Source: Xiphydria camelus
Lineage: Eukaryota > Arthropoda > Insecta > Hymenoptera > Xiphydriidae
Assembly: GCA_963678675.1 (NCBI GenBank)
Contig: OY783195.1
Coordinates: 16,957,342 to 17,021,341 of the forward strand
DNA length: 64,000 bases
Direction of reading: 5' to 3'
Shown here: positions 6,462 to 64,000 of the stretch, in pieces
Layout: each line of letters starts with the position of its first letter
Position numbering within the stretch: position 1 is the stretch's first letter
Made by a program: the position numbers and the translations under genes
The notes under the pieces: generated by a model
Databases searched by the model: none
Seen by the model: the letters and a program-made list of their open reading frames with translations, nothing else
Told to the model about the DNA's origin: nothing

Positions 6462-7829
6462 TTTTAAACGACTACAGACAACATAAGTATTACCTTAAGA
6501 ATTTTATTTCTGACCTCAAATTTGTAATCAGCAACCTCAAGAACCCTTGTATAAGTACGACCCTTGTATAAGTAACTCAAACCTTTTTTCTATTTTTGGC
6601 CAAAGAATGAAATCTCTCAGACCAATGTGGGATGCTGAAAATACAGGGTTACTACAAAAGAATCATCACGTTTTAAAAATATATATTTCATAAAGTATTA
6701 CAGATATAATCGTAAATGATCTGCCAATAGGAAGGGAAAATATTCAAGTTTTTGAGCATATCATTACAAATATTCGATGTGCGCTCCTTGCGTCATACGA
6801 CATACGTCCAAACGATAGCCCGGTTCGATCCATACACGCTGTAATGTGTGTCGATCGATATTTTTAACAGCAGTCGTAATGCGTTCTCGGAGTTCATCCA
6901 ATGTAACAACATGCAATGGTACCAACAGGCAATGATGGTATGTAAACTTTATCTTTAATGCAGCCCTAAAGAAAAAATATTATGCGTGCAACGCCACGCG
7001 GTAGAAGTGAAACTTCTAGACGCTTTTCAGTTGTGATAATTTATGTAAAGTAAAGATTGGTTTAATTCGGCTAAATTAAATGATGGGAATTTATGAAAAT
7101 AACAAATGATAAATTGTAAGATTATTTATGCTATATGAAACTATGCAAAAATATAAGACTTACGACTATTGTAAATGATAGATACAATTTTAAGTAAAAG
7201 TTCACAATGATATTTTTCTAATAACTACATGGTAGGTGTAGTTCGTTTCCAATTCAGACGGACTGATTTATAATTCCTAAATGTGTTGTTTTTATATACC
7301 TACCTACTATTTATATCCCTATTCCCTTAAGAGGGTAAATGAATAAAAATGTAAATGTAAATTTTAAAGCAATCGGTGAAGAACTTTCGGAGATTTAAGA
7401 TTATGGACAAACGAACATTTACATTTTTATTTATGTACCCTCTTAAGGGAGTAGGTATATAAAAACAACACATTTAGCAGTTATAAATCAGTCCGTCTGA
7501 ATTTCAAACGAACTATACCTACTATGTAGTTATTAGAAAAATATCATTGTGTGAATTGTATCTATCATTTACAATAGTCGTAAGTCTTATATTTTTGCAC
7601 AATCTTATATAGCATAAGTAATCTTACAATTTATCATTTGTTATTTTTATAAATTCCCATCATTTAATTTAGCTGAATTAAACCAATCTTTACTTTACAT
7701 AAATTATCACAACTGAAAAGCATCTAGAAGTTTCACTTCTACCGCGTGGCGTTGCACGCACAATATTTTTTCTTTGGGGCTGCATTAAAGACAAAGTTTA
7801 TATACCACCATTAACCACCAACAACATCG

Positions 7830-7988
7830 ATTGAACTCCGAGAACGCATTGCGACTGCTGTTAAAAGTATCGATCGACACACATTACAGCGTGTATGGAT
7901 CGAACCGGACTATCGTTTGGACGTACATATGTCGTGTGACGCAAGGAGCCCATATCGAACATTTGTAATGATATTCTCTAAAACTTGA
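7830..7988 (+). pseudogene. Mariner-like transposase C-terminal tail (in palindrome arm)
   Basis: An open stretch of 52 codons reads IELRERIATAVKSIDRHTLQ followed by RVWIEPDYRLDVH. It resembles the last residues of mariner/IS630 transposases, after the DDE domain (LR.RI..AV..I...TLQRVW). It ends at TGA. The opposite arm carries the inverted counterpart at about 6740-6905. No catalytic residues remain. Confidence 0.55.
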
Positions 7989-8022
7989 ATATTTTCCCTT
8001 TCTATTGACATATCATTTACTA

Positions 8023-8588
8023 TTAGGTGTAGAAATAAGTGTCCGCTGTTTGACAAAAGATGGCCCCGCCAGAAGGTTATGTTGAAATTGTCAGATGTAA
8101 AAAGTAGTACCGTAAGTTTGGTCATCTGGTAACAACATAACATTGAAGTATTAGTGACTCCGTATCAGCATCAGATAATTTTTTTTGTGCGAAAATGTCA
8201 AGTTTTGTGCCGAATAAGCGTCACTTGCGGGAACTTTTGATTTACTTCTTTAATTTGAAGAAATCTGCAGAAAGCTGAGGCGCATCGCATCGATTGCTTG
8301 TAGAAGCATATGGTGAAGCTGCTTTAAGTGAGAGAAGTTGTCGTGAGTGGTTTCAACAGTTTAAAAACGGTGAGTTTCACGTGGAAGATAAAGAACGCAG
8401 TGGAAAGCTAAAAGTGTACGAAGACACGGAATTGGAAGTATTATTGAAGGAAGATTCGTCCCAAACGCAAAACGAACTTGCACTTACATTAGAAGTGACT
8501 CAACAAGCAATTTCACTGTCTTGTGAAAGACTCACAATAAATTCTTAATTTTTGATAGAAAACGGCGAAAACTTATTTGTACTCCTAA
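8023..8588 (+). mobile_element. Mariner deletion derivative, 566 bp
   Basis: Ends TTAGGTGTAGAAATAAGT (8023) and ACTTATTTGTACTCCTAA (to 8588) are inverted repeats flanked by TA. The same terminus closes the mariner relic at 51211-51228. The element sits in the right arm of the 6644-8663 palindrome. The undisturbed left arm supplies the empty-site sequence, so the insertion point is certain. Confidence 0.9.
8195..8548 (+). pseudogene. Mariner transposase, N-terminal HTH domain only
   Basis: From ATG the frame gives MSSFVPNKRHLRELLIYFFN, an in-frame TGA at codon 28 (8276-8278), then the first helix-turn-helix (AYGEAALSERSCREWFQQFK), VEDKERSGK and the second helix-turn-helix up to VTQQAIS. This is about one third of a mariner protein of roughly 340 residues. 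The DD34D catalytic part was lost in the internal deletion, so the protein cannot be functional. Confidence 0.85.
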
Positions 8589-10780: not shown

Positions 10781-11020
10781 TGTAATGTTCTTACGATATT
10801 AATGCACGCACTAGTTTCGATTAACAAAGCGTTTATTAATAGAAGTTACAAAATGAACAAGAGAACTTAGAACGATGCCGGGACCATGCGTATAGCTTAA
10901 CGGTCGGGAGAGAAGAGAGAGTCTCGACGATGACTCGTCGGACCCGTATCGCGCAGGCGGCGCTGTGTTCGCGTAACGCGTACTCCGATAGATGGCGACA
11001 TAGTAGCTAAAGGCACTACA
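10781..11020 (-). repeat. Element A, 3' LTR
   Basis: 240 bp beginning TGTAATGTTC and ending GGCACTACA, therefore TGTAGTGCC...ACATTACA in element orientation. It is nearly identical to the 5' copy, differing at a few sites plus a short indel near 10942. That implies a fairly young insertion despite the coding damage. Confidence 0.92.
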
Positions 11021-16230: not shown

Positions 16231-16461
16231 TGTAATGTTCTTACGATATTAATGCACGCACTAGTTTCGATTAACAAAGAGTTTATTAACAGAAGTTACA
16301 AAATGAACAAGAGAACTTAGAACGATGCCGGGACCATGCGTATAGCTCAACGGTCGGGAGAGAAGAGAGAGTCTCGACGATGACTCGTCGGACACATCGC
16401 GCAGGCGGCGCTGTGCTCGCGTAACGCGTACTCCGATAGATGGCGATATAGTAGCTAAAGG
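16231..16461 (-). repeat. Element A, 5' LTR (interrupted)
   Basis: Matches 10781-11020 up to CTAAAGG at 16461, where element B begins. The missing end AAGGCACTACA resumes at 23672-23682 after a 4-bp AAGG duplication. This proves B inserted into A. Confidence 0.92.
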
Positions 16462-16852
16462 TGTAGCGGACTACAAGGCATGGAGGCACTCGACTCCAGC
16501 GACGCCACGCAAGGCGCAGTCTCTGGACGGTGGTGACGATGCAGCGATCACCATGCCCCTAGCGGCCAAGTTGTAGTCACGCTTTGGGTGACGAAGGCTG
16601 GATGCGCCGCGGAGGAACCACAGCTCTCTCTCGTTTACCAACTCTCGACCACGACGGACGTCTGGACACACTTCGCTCCTCCATCGCCCCGCGTCCCGGA
16701 CGGACGCTCAGACACAGCTCTCTTGTCGTTTCGCATTAGCTTAGCCACGCCGATAGTTAATAAAGTAAACTCTTGTTAGGTTTATTAATTACCGTCTTCT
16801 CTCCCTTACGTTCGTTTCCATCGCGTTCGGTGGGAACCCCTAAGGTCCCACA
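16462..16852 (+). repeat. Element B, 5' LTR
   Basis: 391 bp, begins TGTAGCGGACTACAAGG and ends GGTCCCACA. It lacks the 8-bp (near 23279) and 13-bp (near 23655) stretches present in the 3' copy. An AATAAA-like AATAAAGTAAACTC lies near 16760. Confidence 0.9.
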
Positions 16853-17021
16853 AATTGGTGACCCCGACGTGATCGTGAAACGGACAAACGGGAAGGCCCA
16901 AGCTATTCGCTGAATTGAATAGTGACGAGGACACGCAGTAGGAAACGCGAACATTCGCACGTGCTACGCCGGAACAGCCGAAATTCATCCCACGAAGCCT
17001 AAATCGCAGTAACGTCCAGTC

Positions 17022-17707
17022 ATGGACGGGGAGACTTCGCATAGCGCACTCGACGGATCGAGCCACGTGGAAGGAGCAGGAACCGAGGCTCATTCGGCTC
17101 GGATAGCGAAGCTACCTCCGTTCTGGAAGGAGGAACCCGATATTTGGTTGATGCAGGTAGAGTCCGCATTCCGGATAGCTCGCATCACCCAGGACGAGAC
17201 CAAATTTCATTACCTATTCGCGAACTTGGACGCTAGTATCCTCCCACACGTTACCGACATTCTACGAAGCTCACCGACAACGGGCAAGTACGAGGCCCTC
17301 AAACAAAGAATATTAACGACCTTCGCCGAAACCGCGGAAATCAGGCTACGACGGGCGCTGCAAGGCCAGATGATCGGCGAGCAGAAACCCTCACATTTCT
17401 TACAACACCTTAGAAACCTTTCCGCGAACCAATGCAACGACGCGGTACTGAGGACACTATTCCTGGAGCAGATGCCCGACCAGGTAAAAGGCATACTGGT
17501 CGCCAGCGAGGAACAGGCACTGGACAAAATAGCTAAGCTCGCAGATAGAATCATCGAGCTCCAGCAACCCGCGCAAGTGGCGGAGATCAACAGAGTCACG
17601 GCCACGGCATCGACATCGAAGACGCCACAACCGGAATTGGAGAGACGGATCGACGCGCTGGCATCGCGCCTTGAGCAGGTACTGCAAAGGGACACTCGGC
17701 CATTAGT
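17022..17707 (+). pseudogene. Element B gag, N-terminal part
   Basis: The frame opens at ATG after a 170-bp leader and carries a retrotransposon capsid-type region (PPFWKEEPDIWLMQVESAFR, KYEALKQRILTTFAE, LRNLSANQCNDAVLRTLFLE). A helical region before the foldback insertion follows. The remaining gag (about 19976-20152), with CYYDENFGTDARKCQSPCSW, a Cys/His-rich tail of this gag type, resumes after it. About 229 codons are open before the break. Confidence 0.88.
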
Positions 17708-19975
17708 CCAGTCATATCGTACATCCAACCTTGCAATAATTAGGGTAAACCTAATTTTTTTATATGTTGTTAGGATCCACCTGGGTTGTATAAATCCAGA
17801 TTTGCAACCCTGAAAAAGTTGTGCCACCTGAGATATAACCAAAAAACAGCGATATTTTTGGACTTCTTTCAATTCTTTGCCAAGAAGACACTAAAGGGAA
17901 CTTCTGACGAAAAACGTCATTCTTACCTTTTCTAAAGTAGATAAACTTTGCTACAATTTAAGCTCCAGCAGAGCTCAATAGCTCTCGTAGTTGATGAGAT
18001 ACAGCTTTGCAAAGATGACAATTTTTTTCTAAAACGGGCAAACTTTAGCTTACGCTCTACTTTCGAGTGAAATATTTTCAAAAGTACTAATCCTACATAA
18101 AAACTTCGAGAAATAAAATTTTAGAAAATTTAATTACCTTCCATTTAAAAAATGGCCAAAAACCAAAAAAGTCACAGTGATATATCGATAGAGGCCTAAG
18201 GCGAGGGGAGCGGGATCGGGCAGGAGGGAAATAATTATTACATTGGACAACAGTGATTTTGTTACTTGAACCAGACCAGGTGATTCTTATAGATTTATGT
18301 GCTCTAAAAACGAATTTGACTCTTAAATTTGTGACGTTGGTCAGGATTTCGAGATACTTGAGGTTAAATATACGAAAACGGGCGATCTTGGCCATATTCA
18401 CGGGTCTATTACAATGAAACTAAACAATTTTTTATTAATTGCACTTGTGTTATTTTTGAACTTTTCAATACATTACTTAATTATTCCTAAACGATTTTAC
18501 AAAGCCAAATTTCAATACAAGTCGATCATGTAGGTCCACCGCACCACGAGTCTGATACATTGAGGCCATATTCACGGCTCTATTAAAATGAAACTAAAAA
18601 ATGTTTCTTCATTGTACTTACAGTATTTGAAAGTGTCGTTTTTGAACTTTTCAATACATTACTTGATTGTTCCTAAACGATTTTATAAAGCCAAATTTCT
18701 GTATGACAAGTCTATTGTTCATATTCATTTAGGCGTGTGGCGCGGTGAACCCGCACGATCGACTTGTACTAAAACTTAGCTTTATACAATCGTTTAAAAA
18801 CAATCAAGCAATGGAGTGGAAAATTGAAAAATGACACTTTCAAATGCTCTAAGTGCAATTAAGAAAAATTTTTTTAGTTTCATTGTAATAGAGCTGTGCA
18901 TATGGCCTAAATGTATCAGACGCGTGGTGCGGTGGACCTACATGATCGATTTTTCGTACAGAAATTTGGCTTTGTGAAATCGTTTAGGAACAATCAAGTA
19001 ATGTATTGAAAAGTTCAAAAATGACACTTTGAAATGCTGTAAGTGCAATTAAGAAAAATTTTTTAGTTTCATTGTAATAGAGCCGTGAATATGGCCTAAA
19101 TGTAGCGGACGCGTGGTACGGTGGACCCACATGATCGACTTGTACTGAAATTTGGCTTTGTAAAATCATTTAGGAACAATCAAGTAATGTATTGAAAAGT
19201 TCAAAAACGACACTTTCAAATGCTGTAAGTGCAGTTCAGAACAATTTTTTTAGTTTCATTGTAACAAACCCGTAAACATGGCCAAAATCACCAGTTTTCG
19301 TATATTTAATCTCAAGTATCTCGAAATCCTGACCAACGTCACAAATTTGAGAGTCAGATTCGTTTTTAGCGCACATAAATCTATAAGAATCACCTGGTCT
19401 GGTACGAGTAACAAAATCACTGTTGTCCTATGTAATAATTATTTCCCTCCTGCCCGAGCCCGCTTCCATCGCCTTAGGCCTCTATCGATATCTCACTGTG
19501 ACTTTTTTGGTTTTTGGCCATTTTTTAAATGGAAGGTAATTAAATTTTCTAAAGTTTTATTTCTCGAAGTTTTTATGTAGGATTAGTACTTTTGAAAATA
19601 TTTCATTCAAAAGTAGAGCGTAAGCTAAAGTTTGCCCGTTTTAGAAAAAAATTGTCATCTTTGCAAAGCTGCATCTCATCAACTACGAGAGCTACCGAGC
19701 TCGGCTAGAGGTAAAATTGTAGCAAATTTTATCTACTTTAGAAAAGGTAAGAGTGACTTTTTTCGTCAGAAGTTCCTTTTAGTGTTTTTTTGGCAAAGAA
19801 TTGAAAAAAGTCCAAATATATCGCGGTTTTTTGGCTATGTCTCAAGTGGCACTACTTTTTCAGGGTTGCAAATCTGGATTTATACTACCCAGGTGGATCC
19901 TAACAACATATAAAAAAATTAGGTTTACCCTAATTATTGCAAGGTTGGGCTCGTTTTTATGTACGATATGACTGG
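17708..19975. mobile_element. Large foldback element inserted in element B gag
   Basis: Arms of about 700 bp (17708-18420 and 19265-19975) are reverse complements, with ends CCAGTCATATCGTACAT and ATGTACGATATGACTGG and subterminal TTAGGATCCACCTGG. The middle holds five related ~175-188-bp units, two forward and three reverse. There is no transposase. Removing it nearly restores gag continuity. A partial copy of arm plus one unit lies at 41242-41575. I do not recognise the superfamily. Confidence 0.88.
18391..19282. repeat. Internal tandem units of the foldback element
   Basis: Units start at GCCATATTCACGG (18391, 18565) in one orientation and at their complements ending near 18907, 19095 and 19282 in the other. 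Each includes CCTAAACGATTTTA, AATACATTACTTGATTG and GTGGTGCGGTGGACC. The orientation switch is at about 18720-18740, so the units mirror each other across the symmetry axis. Confidence 0.8.
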
Positions 19976-20097
19976 CCTACATGCCGATTCCGCTCGGGAG
20001 ACCGTTACACTCGCCGCCACCGAAGCCGATCAAGAGGAAACCCTGGGACGCCCGGCGCCTGTTACTATGACGAAAATTTCGGCACCGACGCGCGAAA

Positions 20098-20640
20098 ATG
20101 CCAAAGCCCATGCTCCTGGACAAGCTCGTCTACAAGGAGTGCGGAAAACTAGAACCGTCGTCGCGAACCGAGGCGGTAGGCGACGACGCACAATACCAAC
20201 GTAACCGCCTTACCATAATGGACAAAAAAAGCGGAAAGATTTTTCTTGTCAACACCGGAGCTGATATATCAACGCTTCCACGCACCGCAACTCACCTCTC
20301 ACCAACTCCTTTTAAGCTATACGCAGCGAACGGGACGCAGATAAACACATACGGTGAACGATTGCTACACGTGGACCTCAACCTCCGTCGAACTTTCAAA
20401 TGGATTTTCACCGTCGCAGACGTCTCAAGACCCATCCTAGGGGCCGATTTCCAGAGCCACTACGGTCTACTGGTAGACCTAAGAAACAAACGGCTCGTGG
20501 ACAATACCACGCGGCTTTCTGCTATAGCAGGAGTAACGCAGGAACCACATCAAAGCGTTCTAACCATCGCAGCCAACGAGGATCCTTATACGCAAATTCT
20601 GAAGCAGTTTCCGGAAGTCACAGCACCCCGAGACCGGGAA
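20098..20640 (+). pseudogene. Element B protease region
   Basis: Contains VNTGADISTLP, where the catalytic Asp of the retroviral-type aspartic protease motif (DTGA) is replaced by Asn. [14 protein letters not shown] follows, the typical ILGADFL-like end of the domain. A frameshift near 20632 separates it from RT. The Asn should inactivate the protease. Confidence 0.85.
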
Positions 20641-21121
20641 AACCGCTGCAGCACGGAGTGGAACGCCACATCGCCACCACGGCTCCACCGATAGCGGAGC
20701 GCGCACGCCGACTTCCGCCGGAGAAACTACGGGCAGCCAAAGCGGAGTTCGAATACATGCTCGAGCAGGGCATCTGCCGGCCATCCGACAGCCAATGGGC
20801 CAGCCCGCTACATATGCAGCCGAAGAAGAACGGCGAATGGAGGCCTTGCGGAGACTATCGCCGACTGAACAGCGTAACGGTACCAGATAAGTATCCCATT
20901 CCTCACCTACACGACTTCACACACAAACTTAGGGGTAGCGCCATCTTCTCGACGTTAGATTTAGTAAAAGCCTACCACCAAATACCACTGGCACCGGAAG
21001 ACCGGCCAAAAACCGCCATCATCACGCCGTTCGGACTGTTTGAATTTAACGTTATGACGTTCGGACTATGTAACGCGGCACAGACGTTCCAACGATTCAT
21101 GGACGCCGCACTACGAGAGGG
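20632..21121 (+). pseudogene. Element B reverse transcriptase, fingers and palm
   Basis: The open frame carries [55 protein letters not shown] with the first catalytic Asp, and [16 protein letters not shown] one-base loss near 21120 breaks it just before YIDD. Confidence 0.9.
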
Positions 21122-22426
21122 CTACCGTTTTGCCACTGCTATATAGACGACGTCCTCGTAGCATCCGAAAACTCTGAACAGCACGAGCAACACCTTAGGC
21201 AAGTTTTCGAAAGACTACGACGGTACGGCCTAACCATTAACATATCGAAATGCCGATTCGGGAAGCCAGAAGTGGAGTATCTCGGTTACCTTATCAACAA
21301 GGAGGGGACCAAGCTTTTGCCAGCAAGAGTGACAGCAATTCAGGAATACAACAAGCCCTCTAACATCGAGGAATTACGACGTTTCCTAGGCGTTGTAAAC
21401 TTTTACAGACCTTTCATTAAAGGAGCTGCCGGAATCCAGGCACCTCTGAACGCCATGCTACACGGCGCTAAGAAGAAAGATAAGCACCCAGCCACGTGGA
21501 ACGAAGAAGCTAGCACCGCTTTCGAAGAGTGCAAGCGGCAACTCGCAAACGCAACGCTGCTAGCGCACCCGGCAGACGACGCAACGTTAGCGCTATGTAC
21601 CGACGCGTCCGACGTCGCGATGGGGGCAGTCCTGGAACAGCACACGGACAAAGGATGGGAGCCGATCGGATTCTACTCTAAAAAGCTAAACACGGCTCAA
21701 CAGAACTACAGTACCTACGACAGGGAGCTGCTAGCCATTTACGAAAGTTTGAAGTTTTTTAGATACATGGTCGAAGGCAGGAATCTTATAATCAAGACCG
21801 ACCACAAGCCGATCACATTTGCTTTCAAACAAAAAGCAGGAAAAGCTTCACCGAGACAGCTACGCCACCTGGACTACATCGGCCAGTTCTCTACGCGAAT
21901 TGTTCACATATCAGGAGACAGGAACATCATCGCAGACGCGTTCTCACGCGTAGAGGAAATAAACCTGCCGGTTATAATAGGAACCGCGGAAATCGCAGTA
22001 GCGCAGAAGACGGACGAGGAACTGCAGGGACTACTACAAGGAGGATCATTGCTGGAGCTAAAGAAGGTGCGAATCGATGACTCCGACGACTTCATTTATT
22101 GCGACATCACCACAAAAGAAGTCCGTCCATATATTCCACGACCGCTACGAAGGAGGATTTTCGATAGGGCACACGGCGTGTCACACCCAGGCAGTCGCGC
22201 CACTAAGAAGCTTATACGGCAGCGATTCGTGTGGCCGAGTATGAATAAGGATGTAGCGGAGTGGACCCGCACCTGCCTAGCCTGTCAACGCAGCAACACA
22301 TCGACACACTCGGAACGTACCAGAACATATACCGGTTCCAGACGCACGGTTCAGCCAGGTACATATCAATATAATTGGACCATTGCCAAGCGCCCAAAGT
22401 TTCAGATACTGCCTTACTATGATTGA
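21122..22426 (+). pseudogene. Element B RT end, RNase H and integrase zinc domain
   Basis: Starts with [10 protein letters not shown] (paired catalytic Asp). It passes through the thumb (LRRFLGVVNFYRPFIKG) and RNase H (LCTDASDVAMGAVL, YSTYDRELLAIYESLKFFRY, IKTDHKPITFAF, NIIADAFSR). It ends in the integrase zinc binder (HGVSHPGSRATKKLIRQRF ... CLAC). All RNase H acidic residues appear present. It runs out of frame near 22300-22400. Confidence 0.9.
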
Positions 22427-23084
22427 TCGATTTACGAGATGGCCCGAAGCAGTCCCCTTAAGAGACACCACCGCGGACACTATAGTCACTGCGTTCTATG
22501 GGACGTGGGTAGCTCGTTTCGGTACACCGGCAACGCTAACGACAGACAGAGGAACGCAATTCGAGTCACAGCTATTCCAAGCTTTAACGAACCTTATAGG
22601 TAGCCATCGGATTCGAACAACGGCGTACCATCCTGCCTCTAACAGTATGGTTGAGCGATGGCACCGATCCCTCAAGACCGCACTCACGTGCCACGGTGCC
22701 AAAGATTGGGTTGCGACAATGCCAACCGTTCTCCTTGGATTACGATCATGCTACAAAGAAGACCTAAAAGCCACTGCAGCAGAGCTCGTCTACGGAACAA
22801 CGCTTCGACTCCCCGGAGAATTCTTCGTAGACGAGGATCTGCAACAGGACCCGCAGATATTCGTAGAAAAATTCAGAGAACAGATGAGGATGATACGGGC
22901 AACGCCGACAGCGCATCACACTAAACACACTCCGTTCATCCACAGGGCCCTAAGCACTTGCTCTCACGTCTTCATCCGGGTCGACGCAGTAAAAAAACCT
23001 TTACAAGCACCGTATGAGGGGCCGGTTCGAGGTCATCGAGCGAGTCGCGGACAGGATCTTCCGGATCAACGTAAACGGGACTAA
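22383..23084 (+). pseudogene. Element B integrase catalytic core
   Basis: The DDE triad is visible: YCLTMIDRFTRWPEAVP, LTTDRGTQFES, and NSMVERWHRSLK. The triad is intact here, unlike in element A. The frame shifts near 23014 and the tail continues at 23014-23238. Confidence 0.9.
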
Positions 23085-23238
23085 CGCCACGGTATCAATA
23101 GAGAGGCTAAAACCAGCCTTTCTGGAGAAAGAGGCCGACCAGCAACAGCAACAACAACATCCAGCAGGCGAAAGAGAAAGTACTTTCAGAATTTATCCCG
23201 GACCACGGACGAAAAAGGTTCATTTCGCGACTAACTAA
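23014..23238 (+). pseudogene. Element B integrase C-terminal tail
   Basis: Carries the basic/SH3-like end (FEVIERVADRIFRINVNGTN, ATVSIERLKPAFLEK) and a short Gln run (QQQQQQ), then ends at TAA 20 bp upstream of the 3' LTR. The polypurine tract lies between. Confidence 0.85.
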
Positions 23239-23258
23239 GTCGCTGGAAGGGGAGTACT

Positions 23259-23671
23259 TGTAGCGGACTACAAGGCACGTTCGCATGGAGGAACTCGACT
23301 CCAGCGACGCCACGCAAGGCGCAGTCTCTGGACGGTGGTGACGACGCAGCGATCACCATGCCCCTAGCGGCCAAGTCGTAGTCACGCTTCGGGTGACGAA
23401 GGCTGGACGCGCCGCCGGAGGAACCACAGCTCTCTCTCATCTACCAACTCTCGACCACGACGGACGTCTGGACACACTTCGCTCCTCCATCGCCCCGCGT
23501 CCCGGACAGACACTCAGACACAACTCACTTGTCGTTTCGCATTAGCTTAGCCACGCCGATAGTTAATAAAGTAAACTCTTGTTAGGTTTATTAACTACCG
23601 TCTTCTCTCCCTTACGTTCGTTTCCATCGCGTTCTGTGGGAACCCCTAAGGTCCGACCCCTAAAGGCCACA
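23259..23671 (+). repeat. Element B, 3' LTR
   Basis: 413 bp with the same start as the 5' LTR, ending GGCCACA. Followed by the duplicated AAGG and the remaining 7 bases of element A's LTR. Confidence 0.92.
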
Positions 23672-29894: not shown

Positions 29895-32800
29895 CCCATT
29901 CCCTCCCAGTGGGTCGTTTGCGACCCACCTAAGAAAAAAAATTCTGCAGCGCCACTTATTGTTTCGTGCGCGCTTCTACCGTGCTAAACACATGTAGTAG
30001 GCTTGGAAACAGTGTTCTGATGCGCCAGCCAGGCACTCCCCTCCACTGATCGGCAGTAGCGGCGAAGCGTCGAGGAGGATGGCGGACCCGGTAGTGCGCT
30101 CTCGCCGACAATGGTAAGTTCAGTGGTAAAAAGTGTTACAATATTTTATATCTGGTGTGAATATTACGGGGGTATGTATACTGCATCTTTAGAGCCATTT
30201 AGGTTGACTGTACTTTGTTTGGTTCATGAGCTGGACGTCATATAAGATAGCGTGGGTCGCAAACGACCCACTGGGAGTGAATCGCGGAACAATGTAGGTT
30301 TACATTCTTGTGCTTATTTTTGCACGACGAGGGCTTTCCGTAACCGTTTTTGAAAACAAACGTTTAAAAATAATATTTTTAGAGAAAAATACAATACTTT
30401 GTAGATTTTTGTGAATTTATTTTATTATTTTGTCTTACAATAATGACACTTTTGTACACTTTTGCAGGCGAAAACCTCTTTCAACTGTAGAAATTCTAGC
30501 CGAGTTGGACATGATGACGGCCTCGGACCTTCCGGGGACCTCCGCAGATATTTTTATTACGCCTCCGGAAGACGACGGTAATTTATCAAATGCTGATTCG
30601 GGTGACGAGGACAACTGCTGCAATCCCGACAAAATGAACAGAAATCAGCTAAAAGCCCAAGCTGAACTGGTCATTCGAGGTACCGTTGGTGTAGATGTCG
30701 ACTCAGACGATGTTTCCAGCGATGACTCTAATCCTGACGAAGATTTCTGTCCTGAATCTGCGATCGATGATGACTCTGAATCAGTGACCGACGACAATTT
30801 CGGCGACGAATCCGAGACTGAAATGCCTGCAAAGAAAAGAAAAGTGACTACATTATCGTTTACGAAGGGAACAAACATGAATTCGTCATCATCAAATAAG
30901 AAAAAAGAAGTGAACCTATCATCCTCAAAAAAGAAACAAGAGGTAGATCAGCCCTTGTCCAAGCAGAAAAAAACAGGCGCATCCGTCATCATCCACGAAA
31001 AAAAAACAGTCGAATTTGTCATCAGCTACGAAGAACAAACAGACAAACCCGTCATCATCAAAGAAGAAAAAACCTACTAGGCCCTGGGAGCAAGGAGACC
31101 TCCAACCATCAGCTATCGAGGAACAGCAGCTTCTTAGCGTAATTGCTGGCGCAATATCAGCTGTAAACAAAGATTCGAATCCATTAGATTTTTGGGAATT
31201 ATTTATAACGGAGGAAGTAATTGAGATGATTGTCAGTAACACAAACTTGTACGCTGCTCAAAATAATGAACCTAACCTAAACCTTACCAGGGAGGAAGTT
31301 TATTGTATTTTAGGTATACTCTATCTAAGTGGTTACGTTCCTCATGCAAGGAAACATATGTACTGGGAGCTATCTGATGACGTGCACAATACCCTTGTTG
31401 CTAAAACAATCCGTCGAAATAGATTTAACGATATTTTGCGTTATTTTCACGTTTGTGACAACACTAATTTGCTCCGAGAAAAAGTAGGTGATAATATGGC
31501 TAAAATTCGAGCCTTTATTGAAGTAATGAACAAGAACTTCATTCATAACGCTCCTAACGTAACGAAACTTTCAGTGGACGAATCTATGATCCCTTATTTT
31601 GGACGTCATGGCTGTCGCCAATTTATAAAAGGAAAGCCCATACGATTTGGCTACAAAGCATGGACTTTGGCACAGAAGCAAGGTTATTGCTTGCAAGCTG
31701 ATATATATCAGGGTAAAGGAACAGAACCTCGTTCTAAAGACGTAACGTTAGGAGAAAAAGTTGTTTTACACTTTTGTGATATTGTATCTGAAATCTACCA
31801 AGGAGTGGCTTTTAGCTTCTATTGTGATAATTTCTTTACGTGCCCAAAGTTGTTGACTGAGCTCGCTAAACGGGGTATGAAATGCACAGGGACCGTGCGA
31901 GAGAATCGAATGGAAGGTTGTCCGTTGCCTGGTAAGAAGGTCATGAAAAAACGAGAAAGGGGATCTTTTGAGAGTGTGGTTGATCGAAAAGACAATATCG
32001 TTGCGGTTACCTGGACGGACAACAGTGTCGTAAACATTTTGTCTAGTGAGCACGGAGTAGAACCTTTGCAGCAGGCTCACCGCTACTCGTTTGCCGAGAA
32101 GAAACTCATAAAAATTCCACAACCTAATCTGATCGCCCACTACAACAAAAACATGGGCGGCGTCGACCAAATGGACAACAACATTTCTAATTACCGGATC
32201 AATATACGATGCAAGAAATGGTACATACCGATAATCTTTTGGTACTTCGATGTGGCCATGAGCAACGCTTGGATCCTTTCACGTTCCTTCGGTTTGACGC
32301 TTGATGCTCTGGAATTTCGTCGCTTTATTGTGAAGAGTTTGATGGAGAAACATGGGACACTTCCTCGTCGCCGACTTCCTCATGCTCCTGTAACAGAGGC
32401 TGTTAAAAATAGTCATGCAGGTCATTTACTCATAAGCCCCCAACCTAGAAGGCGTTGTAAAGTTTGCAAAAATAAAACTATTCAAGCCTGCCAGCGCTGT
32501 AATGTACCTTTACATGTTGAATGTTTTGCAAGATTCCATAATTCTAAATAGATTTTTAACGTGTTTTCTTATCTTCTTTGATACTTTGTTTTTAAGCATT
32601 GCTTTTTAGATTTAGAAGAGAAGTTTGCCTCTCAGTATTTTAGTATTCAGTATTTTTGACTAATATTGAAGATCGATAAAGAGAAGGCTGAATGTTGCCA
32701 AAAACCATGACCAAATGTCGTGTTCGACTGATTTTCTTTATAAGTAGGTATTTCATAAATGCAATTTTGATAGTTGTTGCATGTTGTATTTTATGTGATT

Positions 32801-33340: not shown

Positions 33341-34250
33341 CTATTAGATTTCCCTTGCCCTCGACGGGCCTATCGTTTCGTTCCGTGAGTGCGGGTGACG
33401 GACCCGTGGCGTTCTTAGAGTTTTCTTTTCGTAGTATCTTGTGTCGCGCGTTAATAGCAATCACATTTATTGTTTAGCGATTTAGTTCGCGGTTGTAGTA
33501 TCTGGGGATGCTCGGAAAATTCGGCAGCACGAGGCGACCGAATTCCCTGAGACGAGTTTAGCCCGCGTTATCGTCGGCAGGATAGTGCGCGTCGGTAGTG
33601 CGGTAATACCGTTTTCGTTTCGTTCTGTGCGCTATCGAGCGCGTTATCGATTAATAGAGAAGAGTGCCCTTAGTGCGGCAATATCGCATAAAGTAGCTCG
33701 TGCGCTCGACTCTCTGTTCTCCGCTCAGGGCGGTTGATTCTCTCTCGCGAATTTCTCCGGCTAACGTTCCTATTCCCTCGCGAATTTATCGCGGCTACCG
33801 TTCCTATCTCTCCCGCGAATTTCTCCGGCTAACGTTCCTCTTCCCTCGCGAATTTGCCGTGGCTACCGTTCCTATCTCTCCCGCGAATTTCTCCGGCTAA
33901 CGTTCCTCTTCCCTCGCGAATTTGTCGCGGCTACCGTTCCTATCTCTCCCGCGAATTATTGTCGGTTATTCTGCTTGTTAGTTTCGCGATAAGGACTGTT
34001 TTGAAGCCCGACCTTGCCGTAGCCGTTAGGCTCTTAAAATAGCCAGTAGTGTATAAGAAGATCTCCAATGAAGCTAAGTGTTATTTTCTTTTTATGAATC
34101 GCCTCAAATTCGTTTCTTTGTCTTGAGACCCCGCCCCTCTCCCTTGCCGATACGGGGCTAAGCTAGCGGAGTTCCGTTTCCGGTTCACGCGATCTGACTG
34201 TTATCGATTTCGACTTTCTTTGGTGTTTCGGAACACCTGGCGCCCAACAT
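33341..34250 (+). other. LTR/leader-like region with primer-binding-site-like motif
   Basis: GC-rich non-coding DNA with TATA-like AGTGTATAAGAAG near 34050 and a sharp GGAACACC followed by TGGCGCCCAAC at 34238-34248. That sequence is characteristic of retroelement primer-binding sites just after a 5' LTR. No gag follows: a MITE begins 100 bp later. It is probably the right half of an LTR interrupted by piggyBac. Confidence 0.5.
33747..33957 (+). repeat. 68-bp tandem repeat, three units
   Basis: Units begin GCGAATTTCTCCGGCTAACG at 33747, 33815 and 33883, with a partial at 33951. Each 68-bp unit is itself two related 34-bp halves (GCGAATTTCTCCGGCTAACG / GCGAATTT..CGGCTACCG). Confidence 0.85.
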
Positions 34251-61324: not shown

Positions 61325-62233
61325 GAAATTTGCCTTGCCCAAACATTACTACCTCTGACGACTACTACAGACGTCAACTAAACTTCATTAGTTTCAACAT
61401 CCATGTCCTTTCAACTCAACAGGCAGTTTTCTACACGTACGATGAGTCTATAGCAAAAAAAGGAGCTGAAGATGTTTGCTCTATGTTGCATCATTTCGTA
61501 TGCAACATTTTGTTCCCAACAGTAAAGGAACTTACGATATTTTGCGACTCATGTGGAGGGAAAAATAAAAATTTTACATTTATAAGGTTTTACACTATTT
61601 GGTAACCTAAAAAGGGAAATTGGGAACCATCAAAGATATTTTCCCGGTTCGAGGCTACTCTTACATGGAGTGCGACCGTGATATGAGTATTATCAAACAA
61701 AATTCATACACTAAAACTTCTGAGGAATGGAGAGATGTTTTCAGGAACGCCCGTGTAAAACCGACTCCTTTTCAAGTGGTAGATTGTGGCCAGGATCTCG
61801 ATATTTTCCAAAATTGGACTGAACATCTGTCGTCCATTTATTCCAAAAAGTGTCCATTCCCCAACAGACCAATAAGAATGCTCAAAATAAGTGCCACCAG
61901 GAGAATTTAGTTTACTACAAAGCACCTTACTCTGGCCCGTACACAAGTTCTCCATTATTGAATCCACTGCCGCCTATGAAAACTCTGACTTCGAAAAAAA
62001 GAAAACAGGCACCTGCGAAGCCAGCCGTGGAACTGAAGAGATTATACGATGGGAAACTCCCTATTAAACCTCCCAAATTCAGAGATCTCCTTCACCTCTT
62101 ACAATTTTTGGAAAAGCCGGAAGCGAGTTTTTACCAAAGCTTGAAGTCTGGCGGACTTGAAGACGACGACGACGCCAACGATTACATCGACGACCCTCCC
62201 ATTGATGCTACAAACCCTGAAGAAGACGAGTGA
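61325..62233 (+). pseudogene. Transposon-encoded DDE-like protein (DUF7869-like)
   Basis: Three frames joined by shifts near 61590 and 61905 carry YYRRQLNFISFNIHVLSTQQ, FCDSCGGKNKNFTFIRF (an acidic motif of an RNase H-like fold), YMECDRDMSIIKQNSY and KCPFPNRPIRMLKISAT, then an acidic C-terminus (GLEDDDDANDYIDD). I know the pattern from arthropod proteins annotated with a DUF7869-type domain. The mechanism is not established to my knowledge. The original start is not identifiable. Confidence 0.6.
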
Positions 62234-62517
62234 ATCCGCCAATATTTCAATGTTGGTGATTTTTTCTCTATTTTTGGAACATTATTATTTTGTTGCGTTG
62301 GTAATAACCTTTTTTTGTAAATTTTGGGTAAATTTTTTGTAAACAAATTAGTGTAAAAATTGTGCAAAAGAAAATTGTTTTGTAAATACATATTTAATGG
62401 ACATTTAACTACATTTTTGCATTCTTTAAAGTAATTTCTTCTCCCCATTGTTTGGTTTAGGGGTAAAAGAGGGTTAAAATTCGCATTTTGTAACGCATGA
62501 GTCGCAGTCAAGGCGGC

Positions 62518-62588
62518 TTACGTCACCTCGCGAGGCGGCTTACGTCACCTCACGAGGCATAAGGAGCAGTTCGGGATGCAATGACTCA
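62518..62588 (+). promoter_or_regulatory. Cluster of CRE/AP-1-like bZIP sites
   Basis: TTACGTCA occurs twice 22 bp apart inside the repeated phrase GGCGGCTTACGTCACCTC, and TGACTCA follows at 62582-62588. All lie 100-170 bp upstream of the TATA-like sequence. Binding is inferred from consensus only. Confidence 0.5.
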
Positions 62589-62732
62589 TCCCGCGCATAC
62601 GGAGTCATCTCAAGCACGGACGACGGAGAAGGTCCCGGTCAGATATCACCAACGGCTGCGATTGGTGCGCAGCTAGGACCCCCAAGGGCCTTATAAGACG
62701 GCCAGCGAGCAGCCACCAGTAGACTGATTCGA

Positions 62733-63062
62733 GCATCTCGCTAGCGGCAGCATTCGCTCCGCGATCACCACTAGCCCTCGATCCTCACCAGCAGACCGAC
62801 TCGAGCATCGATAGTGGCAGTCTTCGCTCCGCGAACACCACTATCCCTCGAAGTCCACCGCGAGATCTGACCCGAGTCGTTAGCGGCAGTCTTCGCTCTG
62901 CGAACACCCTAACGCTCGGGGCTCTCCGATCGACGTTCACGACCGAGAGGGCAGTATTCGCTCCGTGAACACCCTCTCGCTCGCCGTCGCTGACGGCCCT
63001 ACGCTGTCCCGGCTTGAGGTTCGCTAGCGGCAGTATTCGCTCCGCGAACACCCTAGCGAACT
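62733..63062 (+). ncRNA. Five tandem two-stem hairpins with covarying outer stems
   Basis: Each unit has an inner hairpin TTCGC-TCC-GCGAA (inner stems start at 62753, 62823, 62892, 62957 and 63036). It is set in GGCAGtN...CACC and an outer stem whose sequence changes while pairing is kept: GCTAG/CTAGC, GATAG/CTATC, GTTAG/CTAAC, GAGAG/CTCTC and TTCGCTAG/CTAGCGAA. Further flanks (CGAG/CTCG, CCCGAG/CTCGGG) pair in units 1-3. The units lie between TATA and AATAAA, so they should be transcribed. Function unknown. Confidence 0.7.
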
Positions 63063-63400
63063 CGCCGCTCCAACCGACGTTTTCACGTCGCCTCGCCTAC
63101 TCGACGAGCTCCTACGTAGACGATTCACGTTCACTTCCGGCCCTACGACGGTATCCGAGACGCTAGCAGTACCCGGCACGCTACGACTGACGTAGCCTTC
63201 CCAGGGGACGGCTCTCTCGACGCATCCACGCAGCCAGCCCGGTCTCGCACCTTCGACGCTTCTCTCATTTTTATCCCTCCCGGGATCGATATTCCCCCAC
63301 ATACACGCTCACACACCCACCATCTGTACGCCCTTATCTCGAATAAACAATTGTTATCGTTTATCCTCGTTTTGTGCGTCTTCCCCCCTCTTATAATTTT

Positions 63401-64000
63401 AAATTCGATGTTTTTATGAAATATCATCCAATATTTTGAAAAACAGTTATCTGGAAAACATATTGTGAATCTGCATAGTTGGAGATTCAAATACAACATT
63501 TTTTGTATTTTTAAAACTGTTTTTCTAGTCACCATTAGTTGGTAAACTTTAACATTAATTTTTCTCTAAATCAGCTTTGGGCCGATGACGGGGTTTTTCC
63601 CTTGGACTCTTCAACTCCAAGTGCCATAGCAGCTTGTCTTGTTTGAACAAATTTGATTTCATATTTCAGCAGGATTTACAGTTTTAGTTTCCTCGCTTTT
63701 GTAAAATATTTTTTTTTTATTAAATACGTTCTTCTAACATCTATGTCCTTACACTATGTCCTTATCATTTTTGGTATACCCCACTTTAACCAAGCGACAG
63801 CGGGTAGAACGCGGTTTACCCGGGTAAAGCCCGAAACGTGTGTTATTTAAATTATATTTCAAACATTACCCATGTTTCGTGGGTACTATGGAGTTTACCC
63901 GGGTAATCCTAGGTTTAGCCGTTATTCTAACTTTACCCATAACATAAATATAATTTCTACAAAATCCCGTAATGCTCAACTTGAAATACCGACTTTTTCA
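63401..64000. other. No gene recognised; TTTACCCGGGTAAA palindromes
   Basis: AT-rich DNA. TTTACCCGGGTAAA at 63818 and TTTACCCGGGTAA at 63895 are repeated palindromes near the window edge and could mark another inverted-repeat element running off the end. Confidence 0.35.

What the first reader, a model, noticed from the sequence alone, without database searches (positions are those of the whole stretch)
62733..63062. Five repeated hairpins with compensatory base changes in an LTR-like transcribed region
The inner hairpin sequence is constant in all five units, while the outer stem differs in each (GCTAG, GATAG, GTTAG, GAGAG, TTCGCTAG) and the opposite strand changes to match. One base pair is even tuned to a full T-A pair in unit 2. 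Such covariation is hard to get by simple tandem duplication and points to selection for an RNA (or single-strand DNA) structure. Location between TATA-like and AATAAA signals suggests a repeated leader RNA domain, for instance for packaging, dimerisation, translation or protein binding. I know of no described element of this form.
Basis: partly seen in the sequence, partly recalled or inferred. Interest (0 to 1): 0.85.

Follow-up and report, generated by a model that had tools for sequence, protein, structure and literature searches.

The report
Five-hairpin array in LTR-like element
What looks like a leftover end of an arthropod retrotransposon carries five similar RNA-hairpin repeats whose stems have changed in matching pairs, which suggests that the folded RNA was useful to the element, but what it bound or did is not known.

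Summary
Each has a nearly constant core, GG-CAGUM-UUCGC-UCC-GCGAA-CA-CC, on a 5-bp stem that differs between units but stays paired in all five. Strict covariation is modest: two inner-stem columns plus one outer-stem column. Unconstrained divergence almost never gave the inner-stem pattern, but template switching could. Fold stability is not unusual for this window.

The array lies in a GC-rich, solo-LTR-like island (best reading 62489-63395) with a TATA box and AATAAA; its exact ends are uncertain. It starts 6-11 nt after the predicted cap site. The predicted R-U5 has no ATG, within the longest ATG-free run of the window. Rfam has no match.

My reading: redundant protein-binding RNA hairpins in an R region, working most like retroviral post-transcriptional control elements, with RNA packaging as the main rival. 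Function and transcription are inferred. The decisive test, other copies in the same genome, could not be run: all 23 genome-search runs did not complete.

The parts
62489..63395 (+). putative solo LTR, 907 bp, TGTAAC...CTTATA (best reading of the ends)
   Evidence: GC rises from 0.37 to 0.57 at 62489 and falls from 0.53 to 0.13 at 63395 in 30-nt steps, with an AT-rich dip at 63335-63364. Flanked by ATTT on both sides (62485-62488, 63396-63399), but such 4-bp repeats next to a TG start are expected by chance (6 found, mean 6.1 in 500 shuffles). No other copy examined.
62453..63349 (+). alternative ends of the element, TGGTTT...TAAACA with 6-bp flanking repeat ATTGTT
   Evidence: TG..CA ends with a 6-bp repeat arose in 11 of 500 shuffles of the flanks. 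It would end 2 nt after AATAAA, leaving no room for a poly(A) site inside the LTR, so I rank it second.
62511..62554 (+). two 22-bp direct repeats, each with TTACGTCA (CRE/ATF-like, site name recalled), in predicted U3
   Evidence: 4 such 8-mers on the + strand of the window
62582..62588 (+). TGACTCA, AP-1-like site (name recalled), in predicted U3
   Evidence: seven such 7-mers on the + strand of the window, so weak
62691..62697 (+). TATA-like box TTATAAG; predicted start about 62718-62723
   Evidence: sequence match only (TATAAG occurs 27 times on the + strand)
62729..62781 (+). hairpin unit 1
   Evidence: folds alone (-15.6 kcal/mol) but its pairs have at most 0.21 probability in the predicted R RNA
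62801..62851 (+). hairpin unit 2
62872..62919 (+). hairpin unit 3
62939..62984 (+). hairpin unit 4
63014..63065 (+). hairpin unit 5, longest inner stem (8 bp)
62719..63395 (+). predicted R plus U5 (677 nt) without any ATG
   Evidence: 0 ATG and 7 CAT in 62719-63370; 0 ATG in 63371-63395; ATG-free run of 827 nt from 62581 to 63408
63342..63347 (+). AATAAA polyadenylation-like signal; T/G-rich stretch 63369-63379 downstream
   Evidence: AATAAA occurs 86 times on the + strand of the window

Best explanation
The region is most likely the R part of a solo LTR left by an arthropod LTR retrotransposon. The element's RNA would start 6-11 nt before unit 1 and carry five copies of one hairpin module near its cap, and again near its 3' end if R runs to the poly(A) site. 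The nearly constant part (GG/CC pair, CAGUM/CA asymmetric internal loop, UUCGC-UCC-GCGAA cap) is the part a protein would read. The lower stems are only held paired, so they drift by matched changes. The array is then a multivalent docking site. Because it lies in R, in an AUG-free leader, I think its most likely job is to recruit a double-strand-binding factor (for example MLE, the fly homologue of RNA helicase A) or an export factor, so that the structured RNA is exported and translated, as retroviral RU5 post-transcriptional control elements do. Shown: the units, the pairing, the core more constant than most spacers, the absence of ATG. Inferred: LTR identity, transcription, protein binding, the job.
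For: Pairing kept through changes on both arms, rarely reproduced without constraint. Of 120 ways to pair 5' halves with 3' halves only two reach the observed 84 of 90 pairs: the true one and the exchange of units 1 and 5. For 4 of 5 units the unit's own 3' half gives the most stable hairpin. Core identity is 0.91, while of 10 spacer pairs 3 had 6 or fewer of 200 shuffles scoring as well and 7 had 17 or more. Units 2-5 form with high probability in the predicted R RNA. No ATG in 677 nt of R-U5 against 7 CAT in R, within the longest ATG-free run of the window; in a gypsy element of the same window such a run (16602-17022) ends at the gag ATG. Retroviral PCEs are redundant stem-loops of the 5' UTR, with R and U5 named for HIV-1 and HTLV-1, bound by RNA helicase A (PMC2657110, passages); MLE targets RNA hairpins in flies (PMC4710571, passages).
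Against: Only three columns vary with full compensation, one of them with mismatches in two units. Template switching could make such changes. Units 1 and 2 still share their spacer well (88% over 24 nt), so not all spacers have diverged. Unit 1 forms poorly in context. Stability is not exceptional and the - strand is at least as stable. Wobble-type evidence for the strand is a tie, two cells each way by my reading. Dinucleotide shuffles lack ATG in 451 of 5000, so the ATG gap is only suggestive by that test. The ends of the LTR are uncertain and the ATTT repeat is of no statistical weight. The predicted R (about 640 nt) is far longer than the 70-150 nt given for gammaretroviruses and lentiviruses (PMC3601003). 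No transcript data, no other copy, no internal region, no test of any protein.
Confidence: 0.34

Rival explanations
1. Packaging or dimerisation signal: the five hairpins are repeated sites for the element's own Gag, so that its RNA enters the particle.
For: The same structural evidence. Repeated sites in a leader suit multivalent Gag binding (general knowledge, no call).
Against: No Gag of this element is known, so binding cannot be tested here. The array lies wholly in the predicted R region, before any primer-binding site.
Confidence: 0.24
2. Mutational origin without selection on RNA: tandem duplication of an inverted repeat, with template switching restoring complementarity of the arms.
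For: The mechanism is published for RNA hairpins (PMC8794818, abstract and passages). Unit 4 has matched changes at adjacent columns plus loss of both unpaired bases, as one switch event would give.
Against: The 5/2-nt internal loop stays unpaired and nearly constant in all five units, whereas copying one arm would tend to erase it; the unmatched C persists in units 1, 3 and 5. The core is more constant than most spacers.
Confidence: 0.2
3. DNA-level element: repeated protein-binding DNA sites acting as enhancer or insulator, as the tandem repeats in the 5' UTRs of gypsy, ZAM and Idefix.
For: Tandem repeats in leaders of Drosophila LTR elements act as insulators (PMC8872304, passages). The 24-bp core is constant enough for a DNA site.
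Against: A DNA site does not explain why the stem arms outside the core change in matched pairs.
Confidence: 0.12
4. A single-copy non-coding RNA gene with tandem stem-loops (works like roX), not an LTR.
For: One copy in the window; promoter-like and polyadenylation-like signals frame a stretch of about 640 nt; the ends of an LTR are not firmly found. [quoted passage not shown]
Against: GC steps at both ends and a window full of transposable elements fit an inserted LTR better.
Confidence: 0.1

Closest known systems
Retroviral post-transcriptional control element (PCE) bound by RNA helicase A (PMC2657110)
   Same: Redundant stem-loops near the cap in the leader of an LTR element
   Different: Five copies of one hairpin here; no sequence comparison made; arthropod element; no helicase or translation data
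[quoted passage not shown]
   Same: Repeated internal-loop motif in a retroelement RNA (two-fold repeat recalled, not from a call)
   Different: CTE lies in the 3' UTR (PMC2657110); sequences not compared
Tandem-repeat 5' UTRs of gypsy, ZAM, Idefix and Tirant (PMC8872304)
   Same: Insect LTR elements with tandem repeats in the leader
   Different: Described as DNA-level insulators, enhancers or silencers; the words stem and hairpin do not occur in that main text
roX RNAs of Drosophila
   Same: Tandem stem-loops in one transcript
   Different: Cellular dosage-compensation genes; no sequence comparison made
Roquin constitutive decay element (recalled)
   Same: UUC..GAA stem with a three-base loop and C-G closing pair
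   Different: The recalled loop rule pyrimidine-purine-pyrimidine is not met by UCC

Membership tests
LTR (solo) | Flanking target-site duplication of 4-6 bp | tested here: inconclusive
   ATTT around 62489-63395 is no more than chance; ATTGTT around 62453-63349 arose in 11 of 500 shuffles
LTR (solo) | TG...CA ends | tested here: inconclusive
   TG...TA for 62489-63395; TG...CA for the alternative 62453-63349
LTR (solo) | Promoter and polyadenylation signals inside | tested here: met
   TTATAAG 62691 and AATAAA 63342, by sequence match only
LTR (solo) | Likeness of the part after AATAAA to a known LTR | tested here: inconclusive
   alignment to the gypsy LTR at 16759 ff. scores 25 without AATAAA, reached by 70 of 1000 shuffles
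LTR (solo) | Further copies, some flanking gag-pol with primer-binding site | tested here: inconclusive
   No second copy in the window; genome search unanswered in all 23 calls
Retroviral PCE | Redundant stem-loops in the 5' leader (R-U5) | tested here: met
   on a predicted R region
Retroviral PCE | Binding of RNA helicase A/MLE and effect on translation | not testable with these tools
   bench work needed
Insulator repeat of the gypsy/ZAM kind | Insulator activity through a DNA-binding protein | not testable with these tools
   bench work needed
Any Rfam family | Score above gathering threshold | tested here: not met
   0 matches in the window; only match at E up to 5 in 62450-63420 was sR44 on the - strand, 13.1 bits against 45 needed
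roX-type tandem stem-loop RNA | Stand-alone cellular gene | not tested
   copy number unknown

The most novel reading that the evidence does not exclude
A new RNA module of arthropod LTR retrotransposons: five addressed hairpins, each with its own lower stem so that arms do not cross-pair with neighbours, presenting one constant internal-loop head five times to a dedicated partner (Gag or a host protein).
Probability: 0.25. Interest if true: 0.75.

Novelty: new variant of a known kind. Interest (0 to 1): 0.47.

Why it matters
Tandem repeats in the leaders of insect LTR elements have been read as DNA insulators (PMC8872304); I recall few cases where an RNA structure was shown there. A repeated hairpin with a nearly constant head and matched stem changes gives a defined 24-nt motif to look for in other elements and to test for binding by Gag, MLE or NXF1. 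It is also a natural test case for telling selection on RNA from template switching.

Tried and rejected
Rfam, whole window at gathering score and the region at E up to 5: nothing relevant. tRNA scan: none. Second copy of the LTR in the window: none. A covariance model of the units finds only the same five in the window, and on 1001 bases without filters no sixth unit; the next + strand hit is 5.8 bits. Pattern scans: IMG/VR 0, 1, 0; GTDB genomes 1. The GTDB hit, one unit in a bacterial metagenome-assembled genome, folds its inner hairpin and two more pairs; about 0.2 hits would be expected by chance by my own estimate, so I take it as chance. The IMG/VR hit does not fold as a unit. Neighbouring ORF 61823-62233: no Pfam or PADLOC family; one relative, a hypothetical protein of the spider Oedothorax gibbosus, 66% over 65%. 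Searches with gypsy pol (120 of 786 hits listed) and the piggyBac-type transposase (120 of 138 listed) show named relatives mainly in insects and spiders, and one snail, at about 40-54% identity, so the host is probably an arthropod but not identified. Overall fold stability as evidence: rejected, as 28 of 366 tiles are below z -4. The ATTT repeat as proof of the LTR ends: rejected after a shuffle test; this lowered the best explanation from a first 0.36 to 0.34 and raised the non-LTR rival from 0.08 to 0.10.

Papers: PMC2657110, PMC3601003, PMC8872304, PMC4710571, PMC6451107 and PMC8794818 were seen as passages only; PMC8579622 as abstract and outline. Nine literature searches ran; their listings showed no described element of this form. 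That is no proof of absence: I saw titles and abstract starts only, several lists were capped (for instance 15 of 619), and several searches asked for rare phrases.

Full report
Observation. The sequence at 62729-63065 holds five units of one hairpin. A MAFFT alignment of the five (A1) and RNAalifold give a consensus of an inner hairpin UUCGC-UCC-GCGAA, an asymmetric internal loop CAGUM/CA, a GG/CC pair, an unmatched C (opposite an A in unit 1, replaced by a T-A pair in unit 2, absent in unit 4), and a stem of 5-6 bp. Pair by pair, 62 of 65 cells are standard pairs. Column pair 10-43 is CG, AU, UA, AU, CG in units 1-5, and 11-42 is UA in four and GC in unit 4. Sliding one arm by 1-3 columns drops pairing from 95% to 31-50%. 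Three pair types at one column and two at the other mean at least three matched double changes on any tree of the units.

Outer helix. Folding each unit with more flank shows a further helix in every unit: UCGAG/CUCGA in units 1 and 2, CCCGAG/CUCGGG in unit 3, CGA/UCG in unit 4, GAG/CUC in unit 5. In a hand alignment checked against the window 84 of 90 cells pair. The outermost column goes from T-A to C-G in unit 3 but is mismatched in units 4 and 5; another column has a T-G wobble in unit 5; one is mismatched in unit 4.

Chance. Dealing the 3' letters anew among units reached the observed pairing in 0.13% of 100,000 shuffles. For the smaller structure 3 of 500 shuffles reached it, while 67 of 500 reached the number of pairs changed on both sides. 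A star-like simulation of the inner stem from a paired ancestor without constraint, asking for all 25 cells paired and at least three double changes, succeeded in 0, 2, 0 and 0 of 200,000 runs at divergences 0.10, 0.16, 0.25 and 0.35. The core is 0.91 identical between units and the arms of both stems 0.76-0.77. Of ten spacer pairs three had 6 or fewer of 200 shuffles scoring as well, the rest 17 or more. The stretch before unit 1 was cut to 10 nt in that test; with its full length it is 88% alike to the one before unit 2 over 24 nt, part of which is the outer helix (family D6). So units 1 and 2 are a younger pair and the other spacers have diverged more.

Results against. The region's fold energy is not outstanding: z -4.34 for 62700-63100 with 100 shuffles but -2.65 for 62719-63066 with 25 shuffles, while 28 of 366 tiles of the window lie below -4, and the - strand gives -3.8. 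Unit 1's pairs have at most 0.21 probability in the predicted R RNA; for units 2-5 the inner-stem and core pairs have 0.9 or more, apart from the outermost U-A pair of the inner hairpin at 0.57-0.59. Strand: two wobble cells favour + and two C-A cells would be wobbles on -, by my reading, so the strand rests on the TATA/AATAAA orientation and on the ATG count.

Surroundings. The window is rich in transposable elements: two gypsy-type elements, a piggyBac-type transposase and many inverted repeats. The array lies in a GC-rich island. In 30-nt steps GC rises from 0.37 to 0.57 at 62489 and falls from 0.53 to 0.13 at 63395, with an AT-rich dip at 63335-63364 around AATAAA. These steps fit an element TGTAAC...CTTATA of 907 bp, with ATTT on both sides. 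But a 4-bp repeat beside a TG start is expected by chance (6 candidates found, mean 6.1 in shuffled flanks). A rival pair of ends, TGGTTT...TAAACA at 62453-63349 with a 6-bp repeat ATTGTT, arose in 11 of 500 shuffles; it would end 2 nt after AATAAA and so leave no room for a poly(A) site, which is why I rank it second. The part after AATAAA resembles that of the gypsy LTR at 16759 only weakly (score reached by 70 of 1000 shuffles without AATAAA). Inside are two 22-bp repeats with TTACGTCA, a TGACTCA, TTATAAG at 62691 and AATAAA at 63342 followed by a T/G-rich stretch. I read this as a solo LTR with a long R region (about 640 nt, against 70-150 nt given for gammaretroviruses and lentiviruses in PMC3601003, passages, which also links long R regions to stem-loops). 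This is inference.

Leader. 62719-63395 holds no ATG. The ATG-free run from 62581 to 63408 (827 nt) is the longest between successive ATGs on either strand of the window; the next is 561. In the gypsy element at 16478-23654 the ATG-free run 16602-17022 ends at the gag start codon. This fits a scanned leader. Dinucleotide shuffles of R average 2.1 ATG, with none in 451 of 5000, so the count alone is suggestive, not proof.

How it may work. A constant head on variable but paired lower stems is what a protein-binding RNA hairpin would show (general knowledge). Five copies give multivalency. Different lower stems may also keep neighbours from cross-pairing: only the true pairing and the exchange of units 1 and 5 reach 84 pairs among 120 arrangements, and own halves give the best hairpin for units 2-5, while unit 1's 5' half would be better with unit 5's 3' half. 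The place, R and leader, matches PCEs, redundant stem-loops of retroviral 5' UTRs that bind RNA helicase A and promote polysome loading (PMC2657110, passages); the fly homologue MLE targets hairpin RNAs (PMC4710571, passages). I therefore rank an export or translation role first, packaging second, mutational origin third, DNA insulator fourth, a non-LTR RNA gene fifth. None was tested directly.

Template switching deserves weight. It can fix base pairing of stems in one event (PMC8794818, abstract and passages), and unit 4's adjacent matched changes fit it. It does not readily explain the retained asymmetric loop in all units.

Known families. No Rfam family matches. The nine searches of the paper library named in Tried and rejected showed no such element in their listings. 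I file it as a new variant of a known kind (redundant leader stem-loops of LTR elements), not as a member of PCE, whose defining binding and translation features are untested.

Limits. All 23 requests to search the own genome were unanswered, so copy number, element family, exact ends and covariation across copies remain open.

Noticed in passing
16478-16848 and 23283-23654: LTR pair (96% identical as aligned) of a gypsy element whose first ORF carries DUF7041; its internal region holds large inverted repeats (17725-18715 with 18945-19948).
   Followed up: partly
10781-11013 and 16231-16461: Repeat pair (97% identical), likely LTRs of a second gypsy element on the - strand, ending 16 bp before the aligned start of the LTR of the first.
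   Followed up: no
30947-32551: piggyBac-type transposase ORF (DDE_Tnp_1_7, E 1.9e-76), open over 534 aa stop to stop; top relative 55% identical.
   Followed up: partly
1-348: Very stable fold on both strands (z -17.2 and -12.9 with 25 shuffles), the lowest of 366 tiles; probably a DNA inverted repeat.
   Followed up: no
6707-8025: A 1.3-kb near-palindrome: the stretch matches its own reverse complement at 85%.
   Followed up: no
33739-33957: Tandem array, 34-bp unit (6.4 copies) or 68-bp unit (3.2 copies, 95% matches).
   Followed up: no
61823-62233: ORF beside the LTR-like element with an acidic C-terminus and no known domain; its one relative found is a spider protein (66% identical over 65%).
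   Followed up: partly
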